Below are positions 4,441 to 10,710 of a stretch of 64,000 nucleotides of DNA, in pieces; within the stretch, counting starts at the first letter, position 1, and the number at the start of each line of letters is the position of its first letter. The notes beneath the pieces were generated by a model. That model saw nothing but the letters and a program-made list of their open reading frames with translations, was not told the origin of the DNA and did not search any database. Origin of the DNA: Fimbriimonadaceae bacterium. Lineage in GTDB: Bacteria; Armatimonadota; Fimbriimonadia; Fimbriimonadales; Fimbriimonadaceae. The stretch covers positions 620,001-684,000 of the forward strand of contig JAHBTD010000002.1 of NCBI GenBank assembly GCA_019638775.1, given 5' to 3'. The position numbers and the translations under genes are program-made.

Positions 4441-5079
4441 ATGAGCGGAGACGCCTATATCGGCGCGCGGAAGGAATACGCCAGTCTGAGCCTGGACGAA
4501 TCTATGCTCGGGCCGGACCCCATCCTGATGCTCCGCGAATGGATCGAGGCCGCACGTCAGACCGGACATCCCGAACCTTCCGCGATGTGCCTGGGCACGG
4601 TGAGCCACGACGGACAGCCTAGCGGGCGGATGCTCCTCCTGCGCGGGCTGGACCACGGACTCATCTTCTACACCAACTACCAAAGCCGCAAGGCGGAGGA
4701 GCTTTCCGGCAACGGGCGAGCCTGCATGACCTTTTGGTGGCCTGAGATGGAGCGGCAGGTTCGGGTGGAGGGACGTGTCGAAAAGGTGGCAGCAGCAGAG
4801 TCGGACGCCTACTTTGCGAGCCGACCCTACGAAAGCCAGGTCGCTTCGGCGGCAAGCCCGCAAAGCAGACCAATCGCTTCAAGGATAGAGCTTGAAAAGT
4901 TGGTCGAGGAGCTGAGTGAGGCAAGCACAGATTCGGTGCCACGCCCGGAAAACTGGGGCGGCTATCGGCTCATACCGAGCCTGTTTGAGTTCTGGCAAGG
5001 CCGCCCAGCAAGGCTGCACGACCGTTTTGAGTATCGGCTGCACGGAAACGGCTGGGTGATTCAACGGCTAGCTCCGTAG
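4441..5079 (+). CDS. pdxH: pyridoxamine 5'-phosphate oxidase
   Basis: FMN-dependent oxidation of pyridoxine or pyridoxamine 5'-phosphate to pyridoxal 5'-phosphate, the last step of cytosolic vitamin B6 synthesis and salvage. The 212-residue product has the family landmarks in order: AMCLGTVSHDGQPSGRMLLLR, the FMN-binding strand with RxxLL(R), then FYTNYQSRKAEEL, WWPEMERQVRVEG, SRPYESQ, and the C-terminal dimerisation/active-site region WGGYRLIPSLFEFWQG followed by RLHDRFEYR. The length matches E. coli PdxH (218). I chose ATG 4441 because the in-frame extension to 4270 would translate the heptad repeats. No other B6 gene is adjacent. Confidence 0.95.
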   Translation: MSGDAYIGARKEYASLSLDESMLGPDPILMLREWIEAARQTGHPEPSAMCLGTVSHDGQPSGRMLLLRGLDHGLIFYTNYQSRKAEELSGNGRACMTFWWPEMERQVRVEGRVEKVAAAESDAYFASRPYESQVASAASPQSRPIASRIELEKLVEELSEASTDSVPRPENWGGYRLIPSLFEFWQGRPARLHDRFEYRLHGNGWVIQRLAP

Positions 5080-5113
5080 CCCAAGCCGGATACAGATGAA
5101 GTCGAGCACATGC

Positions 5114-5524
5114 TTATCTCGCTGGGCCAATCACCAACTCCTGCTCGAGAACATGCTGTTCAATTGCGCGCTCTTGAGCCTCTTCTTCGCTCTCGGGCCA
5201 CATCTCAAAAGGGCCACCCTGAGCCGGACTTGTGCTCATCATCCAGCGTCCCGTCACCTCATAGCCGTTCCACTTTCCAATGTAAATGAACGGATATCCG
5301 ACTTGGTTTTCGTTTCGAGTGACGCGTGTGTACCGACGAACGATATTTACCATCTGGTCCGAAGGGTCGTATTCACCCTCAAGGTTGAAGTCGCCATCGA
5401 CATCGGTACCTTCGCCCACAAAGTGGTTCCCCGAGAAGAGGATCATGATCTTCTCAGTGAGACGAAACCCCTCCTGAATCGATTGCCCGACCCAGGGTCC
5501 TGAATGGCTGGTGAATTCTTTCAT
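5114..5524 (-). CDS. small conserved protein, unknown function
   Basis: 136 residues, no signal peptide. It begins MKEFTSHSGPWVGQSIQEG and alternates short polar strands and aromatics (GPWVGQSIQEGFRL, GNHFVGEGTDVDGDF, WNGYEVTGRWMM). This resembles small beta-barrel proteins in which a Trp-x-Gly-x-Ser strand opens the barrel and a GxGxDxxGxF strand follows, similar to many short uncharacterised proteins. It lies 70 bp downstream of the glycosylase gene on the same strand, with a heptad repeat in the gap. Its 3' end faces pdxH, 34 bp away. I do not recognise a function. Confidence 0.65.
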   Translation of the reverse strand: MKEFTSHSGPWVGQSIQEGFRLTEKIMILFSGNHFVGEGTDVDGDFNLEGEYDPSDQMVNIVRRYTRVTRNENQVGYPFIYIGKWNGYEVTGRWMMSTSPAQGGPFEMWPESEEEAQERAIEQHVLEQELVIGPAR

Positions 5525-5534
5525 AAGTTTGTTG

Positions 5535-5562
5535 GGCGTTAGGCGTTAGGCGTTAGGCGTTG
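5535..5562. repeat. (GGCGTTA)4 heptad repeat
   Basis: Three perfect GGCGTTA units and one with a final G, in the spacer between two leftward genes. It has the same 7-bp period as 4327-4375. Confidence 0.85.
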
Positions 5563-5594
5563 GGCCTTGGGCCTCACGCCCCACGTCTGATCGC

Positions 5595-6503
5595 TCACCC
5601 CTCCCCCACCAACCCCTCCACCGTCTTCGGCCAATCGTCCTTCAGCAGGCGCGACAGAGATCGGTCGGCGAGCAGGCGTCCCTCGTTTTGACATACGGCG
5701 CAATAGTTTGTCTCGTTCTCGGCATACCGAATGCGCTGAATCGGCTTGCCGCAAACCGGACAAGGCTTGCCGTACTTCCCGTGCGCGGCAAAATCCGGGC
5801 GAAAGGCCGTGATCTTCCCCTTTCCTGGGAATTTTCCCTTGAACTGCCTGCGCAGGACGTCGGTCCAGTGAACCAGCGTCTCCTGCGTCGCTTTGTAGAG
5901 CGTTTCGATTTCTGGGTCTTTGAGGGCATGCGTCAGCCGAACAGGCGAAAGCCGCGCCGCATGAAGGATTTCGTCGGAGTAGGCGTTGCCAATGCCGCTA
6001 AAGGCTTTGGGGTTGGTGAGGGCTCTTTTCAGGGTTCGGTTTTCCCTCGTCAATGCATGTCGAAACTCATCGAGCGAGCACTCCAACGGCTCGATCCCGC
6101 CGGGGTCGAGCGCGGGCAGCTCTTCCCTGCTCTTCAAAATCCAGAGCGAGGCGCGGTGGTGGGTGCTGACCTCTGTGAGAAGCAGGTGCGAGCTGGGGAA
6201 TTCGACCACCGCGAGTGTGCTCTTCCCTCCCGGTCGGAAGCTTTTTGGCGGCGTGTCGAACCACAGCAGCCGCCCCGAGATCATGAGGTGAAGAACCAGC
6301 AGGCTCCCGCTGTGGAAGCTGACGACGATCTTCTTGCCCAGCCGCTCAACCCCGGTCACCCACTGGCCTTCAAGGTCCTTCGAGCTAGGCGAAACGGTCT
6401 TGAGAAGCGACGGGCTGAAGATGCGGAGCCGCTCCAGCGGCTGCCCGACGATGCGCTCCCCCAACGCTTCGACGTAGATGGTGATATCAGGCAGCTCAGG
6501 CAT
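5595..6503 (-). CDS. Fpg/Nei family DNA glycosylase-AP lyase
   Basis: Base-excision repair enzyme that removes oxidised bases and nicks the abasic site. The N-terminus MPELPD provides the catalytic Pro after Met removal and the general-acid Glu. Most Fpg proteins read PELPEV; PELPDI is closer to Nei-like members. Further evidence: the central helix-two-turn-helix region NPKAFSGIGNAYSDEILHAA and a C-terminal zinc finger with four Cys (CPVC near 253-256, CAVC near 273-276). The finger loop carries GRLLADRSLSRLL where Fpg has the usual terminal Arg. 302 residues, slightly longer than E. coli Fpg. It starts 17 bp after the KAP-LRR gene. GATAAT about 16 nt before the ATG may be its own -10. Fpg versus Nei substrate preference is uncertain. 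Confidence 0.88.
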   Translation of the reverse strand: MPELPDITIYVEALGERIVGQPLERLRIFSPSLLKTVSPSSKDLEGQWVTGVERLGKKIVVSFHSGSLLVLHLMISGRLLWFDTPPKSFRPGGKSTLAVVEFPSSHLLLTEVSTHHRASLWILKSREELPALDPGGIEPLECSLDEFRHALTRENRTLKRALTNPKAFSGIGNAYSDEILHAARLSPVRLTHALKDPEIETLYKATQETLVHWTDVLRRQFKGKFPGKGKITAFRPDFAAHGKYGKPCPVCGKPIQRIRYAENETNYCAVCQNEGRLLADRSLSRLLKDDWPKTVEGLVGEG

Positions 6504-6520: not shown

Positions 6521-9010
6521 TTATCGGATATCATGGATAATGACGCCTTTCTTGACGAGGGCTTTGTAGCCGTCGGTCAATGACAGCCTGTCGATCTGGG
6601 TATGGGAAAGGTAAAGCTCCTTTAATTCGGTCAGGGATGCGAGCGCAGAGAGGTCAGTAACCTGCGTACCATAAAGATAAAGTGTCCTGAGTTGGGTCAG
6701 ATCGGAAAGCGCGGAAACGTCAGAAACCGATGTCCCGGAAAGGGACAGCGCAATAAGTTGGGTCAGAAAAGAAAGCGCAGTGACATCAGAAACCTGAGTC
6801 TCCGAAATATTAAGCCACTGCAACCGTGTCAGAGAGGTAAGCGCTAAGACATCAGCAAACCGAGTTTTGTGAAGGTAAAGCTCGTTAAGCAAGGTTAGGG
6901 AAGAAAGCGCAGAAACGTCAGAAACCCGCGTATAGGAAAGATCGAGCTTCCGCAATTGGGTCAGGGTGGAAAGCGCAGAAACGTCAGAAACCCGCGTATA
7001 GGAAAGATCGAGGTTCTCCAGCCGGGTAAGAGAGGCAAGCGCGGAAACGTCAGAAACCCGCGTATAGGAAAGATTGAGGTTCTCCATCCGGGTCAGGGAG
7101 GCAAGCGCGGAAACGTCCGAAACAGGCGTGTCTTGAAGGTCAAGCGTCTGCAGCTGTGTCAGGGAGGCAAGCACGGAAACGTCCAAAACAGGAGTCCCGG
7201 AAAGGTGAAGCGTCTGCAACTGGCTAAGGAAGGAAAGCCCGGAAAGGTTCGAGACCTGAGTCCCGGAAAGGTGAAGCGTCTGCAACTGGCTAAGGAAGGA
7301 AAATGACTCAAGAATGGAGTCAGACACTTCCTCGTCGAACTCAAGATTAAGAACCATGATGCGCTTGGCATCGTCAACTGTGATTACGCTCGGCGCTACC
7401 TGTAAGGACCTCGCAAGAAATGGACGCAATATTTCCAGCCTCTCCTCATCCGTAAGTTCGCGAGTTCTAGGGACCGAAGCCTCCTCACCTTCTTCTTCAG
7501 GAAACTGGATGCGGGCAAGGTATCCGAGCAACTCCACATAAAGAAACGGCTTGTATTCGCGGTGCGCTTTTGCTACCGCATCTAGATGCCGCTCTCTGTT
7601 TTCAGCCTCAGTCGACTCTTTATCACCCGCCTTTTTCGTGCCCTGATTATGGCGAACAGGCTCAGAGATCTCATCTGGAGTGGTGCGGGCCACTTCGCTC
7701 GACCTATGGACTAAGTAAAGCGATTTCCCGCCACCAGCGACAGCGCGACTCCAAGCGCGGAGGAAATTGCGGCCTGATCGATGGAGGATCAGTTCAGTTG
7801 GGTCAGGGCAGGTTTCACATCCAGCTTCAGTGCACAGCTTCTTCGTATCAAGACCCGAACAAACCTGTCGGATCAAAGCATCCTGCATCCCCTGCGCCAG
7901 CAGGAGCGAGCGGTCGCTGCTTTCCACATCTTGTGCCCCCTGTCTGCCCGTCCCGACGATCGCCGAGTTGATCGCACGGACAACCGCGCGCGGATTGAGC
8001 CCTGCCATTCCCTGCAACACGTCCTTGACGATTCCGCGATGCTCCTCAGAAAGCTCAAGCCAGAAAGGCATACCTTCAAGCTGCGCCGTCACAAACTTGA
8101 CGACGGCATGGTCGCTAGGCGGGATGTGAACCTCAACCTGGAACATTTTGTCCAGATATTGCTTAGCCTTCGCTTCCATCCCGTCCTTCAGGCGTACTTC
8201 ACCAACCATGTCCTCATAACGCTTGGTGACGATGGCGTCGATCACCAACTTGTCCACGCCAACGATAAAGACCACATTGGGGATGTTCAAGTACAGTTTG
8301 ATCGCCTCAAGTACCTGCAGCGCGATGTTCGGCAGGCAACGGTCAAGATCGTCGATGAAGATGACCATGCGCGAGTTTTTCTCGGAATAGTAAAGCTTAA
8401 TCCACTCTGCCAAGGCGTGCTCGAAAGCATTGAAATAAGCGGCCTGCGGAGTGACGTGCTTGCTGTATTCATCCATGATGCCACTGAGGGCTTCCTTCAT
8501 GTCGAGGGTGGCCGATGCTCCCAATGAATCGGAAGGGTCACTGACTTTCGCTTCAAGCTGCAGGCTACCGAGAGTTCGCACAAATGCCCCACCTAGAAAG
8601 GCCCCAAAACGCCTAGCGGCTTTGAGCGCTTTCTCGGTATTAGAGTCTCCGAATTTGACCGAAGCAATGATGACCTCCGCAATCAGGCCCTTCCAAACGT
8701 CTTCCTGCTCTTGGTATTTCCAAGGGTGAAACCAGCAGGTGTCCACTTTCACTCCCGCGTCTTTGCTTTTCCCTTTGAGGAAGGCATCCATCCACGCCAT
8801 CGCAGAAGTCTTGCCCGTGCCCCAACCGCCGCTGAACATGACGGAAAAGGGTGTCTTGGTCTTGGGGTCAAGAATCGCTTCCCACACGGGCTGCAGCCGC
8901 CGCTCCAGCTCAAATTGTTCTGCCTCAAGCGCTTCATTGACACGAAGCGCAGAATCATTTAGAAGAATCAGTCTCCTCTTTTGTCCCTTTCTGTTCACCG
9001 CCCCATCCAT
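6521..9010 (-). CDS. KAP-family P-loop NTPase with C-terminal leucine-rich repeats
   Basis: 829 residues from ATG 9010. The N-terminal half is a KAP-type STAND-like NTPase: Walker A GGWGTGKTS (61-69), the family signature WFHPWKYQEQEDVW near 93-106, and Walker B VIFIDDLDRC with DDLDR at 220-224. A Cys-containing segment (LCTEAGCETC) and a charged linker follow. The last 260 residues hold about eleven 22-residue leucine-rich repeats of the type LxxLTxLxxLxLSxTxVSDVSA. KAP proteins couple ATP hydrolysis to membrane or assembly events and include the phage-exclusion protein PifA. An NTPase plus repeat sensor is the layout of NLR-like immune receptors. No membrane helix is obvious inside the NTPase, unlike classical KAP proteins. 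The longer start at 9040 is rejected because TATAAT lies exactly 6 nt before ATG 9010. Antiviral sensing is an inference. Confidence 0.85.
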   Translation of the reverse strand: MDGAVNRKGQKRRLILLNDSALRVNEALEAEQFELERRLQPVWEAILDPKTKTPFSVMFSGGWGTGKTSAMAWMDAFLKGKSKDAGVKVDTCWFHPWKYQEQEDVWKGLIAEVIIASVKFGDSNTEKALKAARRFGAFLGGAFVRTLGSLQLEAKVSDPSDSLGASATLDMKEALSGIMDEYSKHVTPQAAYFNAFEHALAEWIKLYYSEKNSRMVIFIDDLDRCLPNIALQVLEAIKLYLNIPNVVFIVGVDKLVIDAIVTKRYEDMVGEVRLKDGMEAKAKQYLDKMFQVEVHIPPSDHAVVKFVTAQLEGMPFWLELSEEHRGIVKDVLQGMAGLNPRAVVRAINSAIVGTGRQGAQDVESSDRSLLLAQGMQDALIRQVCSGLDTKKLCTEAGCETCPDPTELILHRSGRNFLRAWSRAVAGGGKSLYLVHRSSEVARTTPDEISEPVRHNQGTKKAGDKESTEAENRERHLDAVAKAHREYKPFLYVELLGYLARIQFPEEEGEEASVPRTRELTDEERLEILRPFLARSLQVAPSVITVDDAKRIMVLNLEFDEEVSDSILESFSFLSQLQTLHLSGTQVSNLSGLSFLSQLQTLHLSGTPVLDVSVLASLTQLQTLDLQDTPVSDVSALASLTRMENLNLSYTRVSDVSALASLTRLENLDLSYTRVSDVSALSTLTQLRKLDLSYTRVSDVSALSSLTLLNELYLHKTRFADVLALTSLTRLQWLNISETQVSDVTALSFLTQLIALSLSGTSVSDVSALSDLTQLRTLYLYGTQVTDLSALASLTELKELYLSHTQIDRLSLTDGYKALVKKGVIIHDIR
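6578..7310 (-). repeat. 66-bp tandem repeats encoding the leucine-rich repeats
   Basis: About eleven in-frame units of 66 bp. Several neighbours between roughly 6900 and 7130 are almost identical, recurring as the reverse complement of gaaacgtcagaaacccgcg. Such similarity suggests recent duplication or homogenisation within the array. Confidence 0.85.
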
Positions 9011-9275
9011 TGGACTATTATACGAGCGGCACAACGACACCCATCATAGATTCAATGAGTCTAGCTTGTAAACGGCATAAGGTTATCTGTGTTCGTTTTC
9101 CAGCATCTGGCCCAATTTCCAAATCTTAACTGGCAATTTCACCAGAAACCCCGACGATAAGGACCAATTGGCACGAAGTTCGCGTCTCAATCTCCCGGGA
9201 ACATCTATCAATCTGATAGACTTACCCTGTTAGATTGCCCCGATGACGTGGGAATTAAAAAGGTTGGTTGGATAT
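9011..9275. other. 265-bp divergent spacer with a 7-bp inverted repeat
   Basis: This spacer lies between the KAP-LRR and PEP-CTERM starts. TCTATCA (9204-9210) and TGATAGA (9214-9220) form a perfect inverted repeat around ATC, a possible operator or small hairpin upstream of the rightward gene. Apart from that and the -10 at 9017-9022 I see nothing in it. Confidence 0.4.
9017..9022 (-). promoter_or_regulatory. consensus -10 TATAAT 6 nt before the KAP-LRR start
   Basis: Read on the minus strand: TATAAT, AGTCCA, ATG 9010. The initiating A would be at or next to the ATG, so the mRNA is probably leaderless. No good -35 is visible at 17 bp. Confidence 0.65.
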
Positions 9276-9926
9276 ATGAAAAGGAATCTTATTTTTGGTG
9301 CAATGATGGTGTTGTTCGCAGCGCCGGCAATGTCTCACGCATTGAGTTTTAGTTTTGTGAGCGAGCCGGGTAACCCGAGCGCACTGATTCGATTTGATGG
9401 CGACAACGCTCGCACGATCACTTTCCCTGCTGCGGGCAACGGCTTTGACTTTGTCGTTGGCAACTCCAGCAACGGAGCGCTCAACGGTCTGAAGGGCAAT
9501 ATCGGCGGCACGTTTACGGTTGGTGCGATCACGATCAATGGAAGCGTACAAACTGCTCCAGTCAGCGGAACGGGATCTTTCAGCATCTTCGATGGTTTGG
9601 ACACGCTCACGGCAGACCTGAACTGGCAGGACGTCTTTACGTTCGGCACGCAGTCCGGTTTGAACGTCAACGGAAACACTAACCTGTCGAATATCAGCTA
9701 CACAGGATCAAACGCCGGTTTAATCGAGTTTGTAAACTCGAACACTCACACGGTGACGCTTTCGACACAGTTCATCCCTGGAAAGACGCTGACGCAGTTG
9801 ATGGCCCAGGGTGCCGTGCACGAGAATACTTACTCAGGAACATTCAACGCGGTCCCTGAACCCGCAACCATGGCGATCCTTGGTGTAGGCGCGCTCGCGC
9901 TGATCCGCCGACGCCGAAGCAAGTAA
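9276..9926 (+). CDS. PEP-CTERM sorting-domain secreted protein
   Basis: 216 residues. Signal peptide MKRNLIFGAMMVLFAAPAMSHA, then a Ser/Thr/Asn-rich beta-strand body (FSFVSEPGNPSALIRFDGDN, NLSNISYTGSN). The C-terminal sorting signal is VPEPATMAILGVGALALIRRRRSK: PEP motif, hydrophobic helix, basic tail. In this system an exosortase-type enzyme cuts and processes exported proteins; no exosortase gene is in the window. ATG 9276 is preferred to 9243 because the signal peptide then begins MKRN. There is no strong ribosome-binding site. An intrinsic terminator follows. The body is unrecognised; it may be a surface or matrix protein. Confidence 0.85.
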   Translation: MKRNLIFGAMMVLFAAPAMSHALSFSFVSEPGNPSALIRFDGDNARTITFPAAGNGFDFVVGNSSNGALNGLKGNIGGTFTVGAITINGSVQTAPVSGTGSFSIFDGLDTLTADLNWQDVFTFGTQSGLNVNGNTNLSNISYTGSNAGLIEFVNSNTHTVTLSTQFIPGKTLTQLMAQGAVHENTYSGTFNAVPEPATMAILGVGALALIRRRRSK

Positions 9927-9977: not shown

Positions 9978-10122
9978 GATGCCATGCTCCGCCTTCGCGC
10001 AACTTTCACGCTGTTTCACGGTCGGTTCGTAGACTCCTTTGCAGAGGCAGAAGTCAAACATGCCCTTGCGGCTGGCGATGGCGACCGCCGAATTTTGTTC
10101 TTGTGAATTTCGAGGAGGAGTT

Positions 10123-10710
10123 ATGAAAAAAGTTATCTTGATAGCAATCGGCACGGTCGCTGCGGCAGCTTCGCAGGCAGCTTGGGTGCAATGGTCGGGC
10201 AACGGCCACTTCTACGACGTGGTGCTCATCTCTGGCCCTGATCGATCTTGGGGAGCGGCAAGCGCTGCCGCGCAAGGAATGGTCGCGCCAAACGGCATGA
10301 GTGGAACTCTAGCGACGATTACCTCAGCCGCAGAAAACGCCTTTGTGTTTTCGCTCGCCGATGCGCCGCAATTCTGGGCGATCGACGGCGCAGGCAACAA
10401 CGAAGGTCCGTACCTTGGCGGCTTTCAAGTGCCCGGATCTTCCGAGCCAATCGGCGGCTGGTCTTGGGTGACCGGCGAGGCTTGGGGCTTTTCTTCCTGG
10501 GCAGGCGGAGAGCCGAACAACTGGGGAGGAGCGGAAGACTGGCTCTCGTTCTTTGCTCAAGGCAATAACCGACTTGCAACCTGGAACGACGTAGGCAATG
10601 CACCGAGCTCCGTTCACACGGCTTTTGTGGTGGAGGCCGTGCCCGAGCCTGCTACGATGGCAGTTCTTGGTTTTGGCGCATTGGCGTTGCTACGAAAAAG
10701 GAAGAGATAA
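10123..10710 (+). CDS. PEP-CTERM protein with C-type lectin-like domain
   Basis: 195 residues. ATG 10123 follows GAGGAGGAG by 2-4 nt, a very strong ribosome-binding site, so the frame upstream to 10039 is not used. Signal peptide MKKVILIAIGTVAAAASQA. The body has C-type lectin-like features without the Cys pairs: WGAASAAAQGM (first helix), GTLATITSAAENAFVFSL, WAIDGAGNNEG, WSWVTGEAWGFSSWAGGEPNN, then ATWNDVGN, which matches the WND calcium-site strand. The C-terminus is VPEPATMAVLGFGALALLRK plus a basic tail. It is probably a surface lectin-like protein; sugar binding is inferred from EPN and WND motifs only. Confidence 0.87.
   Translation: MKKVILIAIGTVAAAASQAAWVQWSGNGHFYDVVLISGPDRSWGAASAAAQGMVAPNGMSGTLATITSAAENAFVFSLADAPQFWAIDGAGNNEGPYLGGFQVPGSSEPIGGWSWVTGEAWGFSSWAGGEPNNWGGAEDWLSFFAQGNNRLATWNDVGNAPSSVHTAFVVEAVPEPATMAVLGFGALALLRKRKR

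What the first reader, a model, noticed from the sequence alone, without database searches (positions are those of the whole stretch)
6521..9010. KAP P-loop NTPase fused to eleven leucine-rich repeats: candidate NLR-like sensor
The sequence shows a KAP-type NTPase (GGWGTGKTS, DDLDR) joined by a Cys-containing linker to a C-terminal LRR solenoid. NTPase plus repeat-sensor is the architecture of STAND/NLR immune proteins, and KAP proteins include the phage-exclusion protein PifA. Transmembrane helices normally found in KAP domains are not obvious. The gene has its own consensus -10 and sits alone upstream of a DNA glycosylase, with no typical defence genes around it. An antiviral or signal-sensing role is an inference.
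Basis: partly seen in the sequence, partly recalled or inferred. Interest (0 to 1): 0.62.

Follow-up and report, generated by a model that had tools for sequence, protein, structure and literature searches.

The report
KAP NTPase fused to LRR sensor
The gene encodes a bacterial protein that joins a ring-type ATP-using switch (KAP NTPase) to a leucine-rich-repeat sensor; rare relatives with the same layout are scattered across at least five bacterial groups and one sits inside a prophage, which makes an NLR-like anti-phage role the most likely but still untested reading.

Summary
In detail: window 6521-9010(-) encodes an 829-aa protein with a KAP P-loop NTPase (44-348), a helical linker and eleven 22-residue LRRs (576-817). 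No TM helix was found. The linker Cys cluster is peculiar to this copy. The protein is not an orphan. It belongs to a well-supported KAP subfamily (11 members, 100/100 support) found in Armatimonadota, Planctomycetota, Hydrogenedentota, Alphaproteobacteria and Desulfobacterales, and rare in each (0.3-1.5% of genomes sampled). Eight of 11 members show LRRs; one carries another C-terminal domain; two cannot be read. One LRR member lies among prophage tail and virion genes. KAP proteins at large swap C-terminal sensors (FGE, HEAT, pentapeptide, TPR, LRR); the LRR label changes at least three times on the tree, and two KAP loci carry retroelements that mutate the FGE sensor. The modelled KAP-linker best matches RdrA, the RADAR anti-phage ring ATPase. 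Best explanation: a single-gene, NLR-like sensor NTPase, probably anti-phage. It is not a STAND/NLR by membership, nor QatA, PifA or RdrA by full-length test. I found no published description of this KAP-LRR subfamily, though KAP replacing STAND in conflict systems is published. Antiviral activity and effector mechanism are inference.

The parts
6521..9010 (-). whole KAP-LRR gene, 829 aa plus stop
7967..8881 (-). KAP P-loop NTPase domain (residues 44-348)
   Evidence: Pfam PF07693 E 3.7e-32; genome-level match at C2:627967-628881; modelled core mostly pLDDT 80-95
8804..8830 (-). Walker A GGWGTGKTS (residues 61-69)
   Evidence: G61, W63, G64, G66 and K67 invariant in the subfamily; W63, G64, G66, K67 across the 23 KAPs of A4
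8336..8359 (-). Walker B FIDDLDRC (residues 218-225)
   Evidence: F218 and D220-C225 invariant in alignments A2 and A4
8380..8698 (-). helical insertion between strand beta2 and the Walker B strand (residues about 105-210), the region where TM-bearing KAPs have their TM helices; hydrophobic helix FGAFLGGAFVRTLGSLQL at 135-152
   Evidence: secondary structure; TM peaks of other KAPs in the same region; G140 and L147 invariant; not a TM
7286..7963 (-). helical linker (residues about 350-575), no Pfam family at a meaningful score; Cys cluster C384/C393/C398/C401 private to this copy
6560..7285 (-). eleven 22-residue leucine-rich repeats (residues 576-817)
   Evidence: LRR_4 E 3.1e-42; register; 66-bp tandem repeat; structural matches to internalins and Roco LRR
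9017..9072 (-). promoter-like elements: TTTACA-18-TATGAT at 9072-9043 and TATAAT at 9022-9017
   Evidence: direct sequence; consensus matches only

Best explanation
A single-gene, NLR-like sensor NTPase. The C-terminal LRR solenoid binds a ligand, probably a phage or mobile-element product, on its variable concave face. Binding releases the KAP NTPase, which assembles with ATP into a ring (six- to eightfold, by analogy with RdrA and QatA). The ring then halts infection, either by itself through the helical insertion in the region where other KAPs have TM segments, or by docking a host effector encoded elsewhere. Shown: domain layout, intact catalytic motifs, subfamily membership, rarity, cross-phylum spread, prophage residence of one relative, sensor swapping among KAPs, retroelement diversification of the sensor at two other KAP loci. 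Inferred: anti-phage function, ligand, ring formation, effector step.
For: KAP plus 11 LRRs with intact Walker motifs. Subfamily of 11 with 100/100 support, LRRs visible in 8 of the 9 whose C-terminus can be read. Strong matches are rare: 1/291 Armatimonadota, 3/392 Planctomycetota, 1/68 of the L135 phylum, 2/337 of the L136 class, 1/297 of the L134 phylum, seed genomes included. A member in G915 lies between a phage tail protein (phrog_1640) and an internal virion protein (phrog_418), next to phrog_376 tail and phrog_894 endolysin genes, on the opposite strand. Among 45 other KAPs: FGE 15, HEAT 5, pentapeptide 3, LRR 2, TPR 1; LRR needs at least 3 changes on the tree. DGR at L233: 20 of 20 TR/VR mismatches at template A; L241: 24 of 36. 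Fold search top hit is the RdrA ring, E 4e-6. PADLOC/NCBIfam matches to QatA, PDC-S20 and PifA over the NTPase. Literature: KAP can displace STAND in conflict systems (PMC8195603); some DGR targets use KAP (PMC10907252); QatA is heptameric or octameric by mass photometry (PMC13279940).
Against: No defence gene nearby in the window, and flanks of most relatives looked like housekeeping genes by eye. No recognisable effector domain. No match to the subfamily in viral contigs. RdrA similarity is weak (TM-score about 0.35, 11-17% identity). Concave-face diversification is mild in this copy (pN/pS 0.99 against 0.62 on the convex side). No close relative genome was available for an empty-site test.
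Confidence: 0.55

Rival explanations
1. A non-immune signalling or scaffold NTPase: the LRR recognises a host protein or envelope component and the KAP ring organises a complex, as Kidins220 or Roco proteins do in other settings.
For: LRR closest in structure to internalins and to Roco LRR, another LRR-NTPase; genes often next to housekeeping genes by eye; no defence island.
Against: Rare and patchy presence across phyla, sensor swapping, DGR-diversified sensors in other KAPs, one copy inside a prophage.
Confidence: 0.22
2. A mobile-element gene serving the element: prophage cargo for superinfection exclusion or competition between elements rather than host immunity proper.
For: G915 copy within a prophage structural cluster, opposite strand; phage KAP family phrog_8614 matches P0001 at E 3e-24; PifA, a plasmid exclusion protein, matches over the NTPase.
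Against: Only one of the loci read is visibly in a prophage; none found in IMG/VR with the subfamily profile; no phage gene seen around the window gene.
Confidence: 0.13
3. An AAA+-type remodelling or chaperone ATPase whose LRR picks host substrates.
For: Orc/Cdc6 and clamp-loader-like folds among the structure hits.
Against: KAP-specific motifs; patchy distribution; the top structural hit is a defence ATPase.
Confidence: 0.07

Closest known systems
QatA (KAP NTPase of qatABCD)
   Same: KAP NTPase with a different C-terminal part; NTPase match E 1.2e-30; QatA reported heptameric or octameric (PMC13279940)
   Different: 106.8 bits against a full-length cut-off of 600; no qatB/C/D neighbours; LRR C-terminus; separate clade from the QatA-like rows
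RdrA (RADAR ATPase)
   Same: Best structural match of KAP plus linker; RdrA has a helical insertion after beta2/beta3 and an alpha-helical C-terminal lobe (PMC9994260)
   Different: No rdrB; sequence match only marginal (E about 0.01); C-terminal LRR array
PifA (F-plasmid T7 exclusion, KAP)
   Same: KAP NTPase homology, E 4.7e-15
   Different: Match confined to the NTPase; C-terminus not matched; no TM found here
KAP proteins with DGR-diversified sensors and KAP replacing STAND (PMC10907252, PMC8195603)
   Same: Constant KAP module plus variable C-terminal sensor
   Different: Sensor is an LRR array; no retroelement seen at this gene
STAND/NLR proteins (plant and animal NLRs, Avs, bacterial NLR-like)
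   Same: NTPase plus C-terminal repeat sensor
   Different: Different NTPase family; no NB-ARC/NACHT match; no N-terminal effector domain
Chlorobium tepidum Roco (LRR-Roc-COR)
   Same: LRR plus NTPase in one bacterial protein; LRR fold match E 1.2e-17
   Different: LRR N-terminal to a Roc GTPase-COR; no KAP

Membership tests
KAP P-loop NTPase (PF07693) | Profile match over the gathering score | tested here: met
   112 bits against 20
KAP P-loop NTPase (PF07693) | Walker A and DDxDR Walker B | tested here: met
   61-69 and 218-225, key residues invariant in relatives
KAP P-loop NTPase (PF07693) | TM segments inserted in the NTPase domain (feature of the 2004 description, recalled from memory; the paper was not held) | tested here: not met
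   No TM in P0001; most KAPs examined also lack them while a minority have them, so this is not required for the Pfam family
STAND / NLR | STAND-type NTPase (NB-ARC, NACHT, nSTAND) | tested here: not met
   No such Pfam hit up to E 1
STAND / NLR | C-terminal superstructure-forming repeats as sensor | tested here: met
   11 LRRs; sensing itself not tested
STAND / NLR | N-terminal effector or adaptor domain | tested here: not met
   About 40 residues before the KAP domain, no domain match
STAND / NLR | Ligand-triggered oligomerisation | not testable with these tools
   only analogy to RdrA and QatA rings
QatA | Full-length equivalog score | tested here: not met
   106.8 of 600 bits
QatA | qatB, qatC, qatD neighbours | tested here: not met
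   neighbours identified
PifA | Match along the 720-aa PifA profile | tested here: not met
   only positions 31-257 of 720
RdrA / RADAR | RdrA profile and adjacent RdrB deaminase | tested here: not met
   14.7 of 600 bits; no deaminase neighbour
RdrA / RADAR | AAA+ fold with helical insertion after beta2 and helical C-terminal lobe | tested here: inconclusive
   Top fold hit E 4e-6 but TM-score about 0.35
PDC-S20 candidate defence family | Match along the profile | tested here: inconclusive
   E 5.8e-27 over 37-274 of 464; no curated cut-off given

The most novel reading that the evidence does not exclude
KAP NTPases form a second, STAND-independent NLR-like system in bacteria: a constant ring NTPase with exchangeable sensors (LRR, FGE under retroelement mutagenesis, HEAT, pentapeptide), in which this LRR subfamily is a self-contained receptor whose effector is the helical insertion of the NTPase domain.
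Probability: 0.3. Interest if true: 0.78.

Novelty: new variant of a known kind. Interest (0 to 1): 0.57.

Why it matters
If right, the NBD-LRR layout arose in bacteria on an NTPase family outside STAND, in at least two KAP lineages. It would give a one-gene receptor for testing how LRR recognition is coupled to NTPase ring assembly. It would also tie QatA, PifA, RdrA-like and DGR-KAP systems together under one logic: constant ring, exchangeable sensor. The prediction is cheap to test with one gene and a phage panel.

Tried and rejected
Housekeeping gene: rejected, rare and patchy. Conserved zinc-binding Cys linker: rejected, the cysteines lie in a private insertion. Armatimonadota KAP-LRR proteins as closest kin: rejected; L057, L059, L060, L061, L067 and L073 form a separate clade, and the nearest kin are in other phyla. 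The first tree had P0001 as a long unplaced branch; adding its true relatives settled it. First genome-contig scan with P0001 alone found nothing. Viral contigs scan with the subfamily profile found nothing. Phage collection hits were almost all LRR-only Listeria records. Empty-site test: no shared gene order around the glycosylase in other genera, so no precise site. L229 C-terminal domain: no Pfam match; one marginal PDB sequence hit (P22, E 0.01) is uninformative; TIR-like only by eye. Two scripts read P0001 joined to P0002 for a hydropathy line and a C-terminus line; the homology searches used only the first 360 residues, and the KAP-region hydropathy is unaffected.

Full report
OBSERVATION. 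The minus strand of window 6521-9010 carries one open frame of 829 aa. Pfam finds KAP_NTPase at 44-348 (E 3.7e-32) and LRR_4 (E 3.1e-42) far above their cut-offs. Eleven LRR units follow one another without a gap, 22 residues each, from 576 to 817; the DNA holds a 66-bp tandem array. Walker A (GGWGTGKTS) and Walker B (FIDDLDRC) are intact. There is no TM helix. The gene stands alone: downstream on the same strand is a Fapy-type DNA glycosylase; on the other side are PEP-CTERM proteins, an RRM protein and a HEAT protein. The genome holds two other KAP genes, without LRR motifs.

RELATIVES. A search with the protein in 291 genomes of the phylum gives only distant KAP hits outside the own genome (best 95.6 against 1218 bits). 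The phylum is Armatimonadota: two of its contigs (G257:C62, 8573 bp; G229:C174, 18371 bp) have the lengths of named Armatimonadota records. A profile scan of bacterial and archaeal species genomes found seven close relatives at 36-42% identity over residues 7-375, after which identity drops to about 30%. They come from Desulfobacterales, Hydrogenedentes, two Alphaproteobacteria and three Planctomycetota (two of them Phycisphaerae). Three more (L229, L230, L234) came from profile searches of whole genomes. LRRs are visible in P0001, L134 (cut by contig end), L136 (a short stub), L137, L138, L140, L230 and L234. L135 is cut before the region and L139 is masked. L229 has the same KAP (E 4e-144) but a different 146-aa C-terminus with no Pfam match. 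The 11 KAP domains form one clade with 100/100 support on a long stem. The mix of phyla in the clade, its rarity, and the lack of close copies in neighbouring genera point to horizontal spread (inference).

SENSOR SWAPPING. The remaining KAP proteins carry different C-terminal modules. Of 45 scanned, 15 have an FGE domain (a C-type-lectin-like fold, per PMC10907252), 5 HEAT repeats, 3 pentapeptide repeats, 2 LRRs and 1 TPRs. A second, separate KAP-LRR clade of seven (100/99) is mostly Armatimonadota, and L232 is a third LRR bearer among FGE and pentapeptide kin; well-supported branches force at least three changes of the LRR label. At L233 a reverse transcriptase (PF00078) lies near a KAP and an FGE-like gene; a 113-bp template/variable repeat pair ending near the FGE stop differs at 20 positions, every one an A in the template. 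L241 shows the same layout with 24 of 36 mismatches at A in 100 bp. These are textbook diversity-generating retroelement signs, seen in KAP kin and not at the window gene. PMC10907252 already reports that some DGR targets use KAP NTPases, and PMC8195603 that KAP can displace the STAND NTPase in EAD conflict systems.

PROPHAGE COPY. In L238 (whole-genome handle G915, same class as the alphaproteobacterial L136) the KAP-LRR gene at 6558-8912(+) lies between a tail protein (phrog_1640, 5052-6341(-)) and an internal virion protein (phrog_418, 8909-9676(-)). A tail protein (phrog_376, E 6e-151) and an endolysin (phrog_894) are close by. A single gene of opposite orientation between late structural genes is the usual place of prophage cargo (established knowledge). 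No subfamily member was found among viral contigs.

STRUCTURE AND MECHANISM. With 23 aligned KAPs the NTPase plus linker is modelled at mean pLDDT 76, pTM 0.70. Foldseek ranks RdrA rings first (8hr8, E 4e-6), then Orc/Cdc6; overall TM-scores are low (query-normalised 0.27-0.38 among the top ten), so this is fold-level similarity. RdrA is a heptameric two-layer AAA+ ATPase with a helical insertion after beta2/beta3 and an alpha-helical C-terminal lobe (PMC9994260). QatA, a KAP, was measured as a heptamer or octamer and binds DNA (PMC13279940). P0001 has a helical insertion (about 105-210) between beta2 and the Walker B strand, in the same region where TM-bearing KAPs have their TM segments. The LRR solenoid resembles internalins and Roco LRRs. 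Across the repeats the predicted concave positions vary more (pN/pS 0.99) than the convex ones (0.62); several relatives show the same trend, L137 and L230 do not. This is suggestive, not proof, of selection on a binding face.

The model: LRR binds a ligand, the KAP domain exchanges nucleotide and forms a ring, and the ring blocks infection through its insertion or a docked partner. The first part rests on anatomy; the ring on analogy; the effector step is a guess.

MEMBERSHIP. It is a KAP NTPase by profile. It works like an NLR in layout but is not a STAND protein by the tests made. It is not QatA (106.8 of 600 bits), PifA (NTPase only) or RdrA (14.7 of 600 bits), and has none of their partner genes beside it.

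NOVELTY. New variant of a known kind. The KAP-as-NLR idea and KAP-DGR systems are in print; I found no description of this KAP-LRR subfamily in the papers that could be searched, and the 2004 paper defining the KAP family was not held, so it may already mention LRR fusions.

Noticed in passing
L238:2026-11803: A KAP-LRR gene of the same subfamily sits between tail and internal virion genes of a prophage; a Fapy-type glycosylase gene (41-694) lies at the left edge, as one lies next to the window gene, possibly by chance.
   Followed up: partly
L233:4241-8363 and L241:4572-8426: Diversity-generating retroelements (reverse transcriptase, Avd-like gene by eye, template/variable repeats with mismatches at template A) next to KAP-FGE genes.
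   Followed up: yes
L229:5424-5861(-): Same KAP subfamily but the LRR is replaced by a 146-aa alpha/beta-looking domain without Pfam match; TIR-like only by eye.
   Followed up: partly
L243:8916-12316: In a relative genome (G014) genes that look like phage portal and terminase (by eye) lie directly upstream of the same glycosylase, where the window has the KAP-LRR gene; the spot upstream of this gene differs in the other genomes looked at.
   Followed up: partly
L139:6841-12454: Near another KAP member lie a Doc/Fic-like gene, ClpB and a Cas9-like gene (all by eye).
   Followed up: no
window 9243-9926 and 10039-10710: Two adjacent PEP-CTERM proteins on the other strand next to the KAP-LRR gene.
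   Followed up: no
window 9010-9022: TATAAT ends only 6 nt before the ATG, so transcription from it would give a leaderless message; a second promoter-like pair lies further upstream.
   Followed up: partly
L136:5935-7698: Subfamily member with a stub of one to two LRRs before a stop codon, perhaps a contracted repeat array or a truncation.
   Followed up: no
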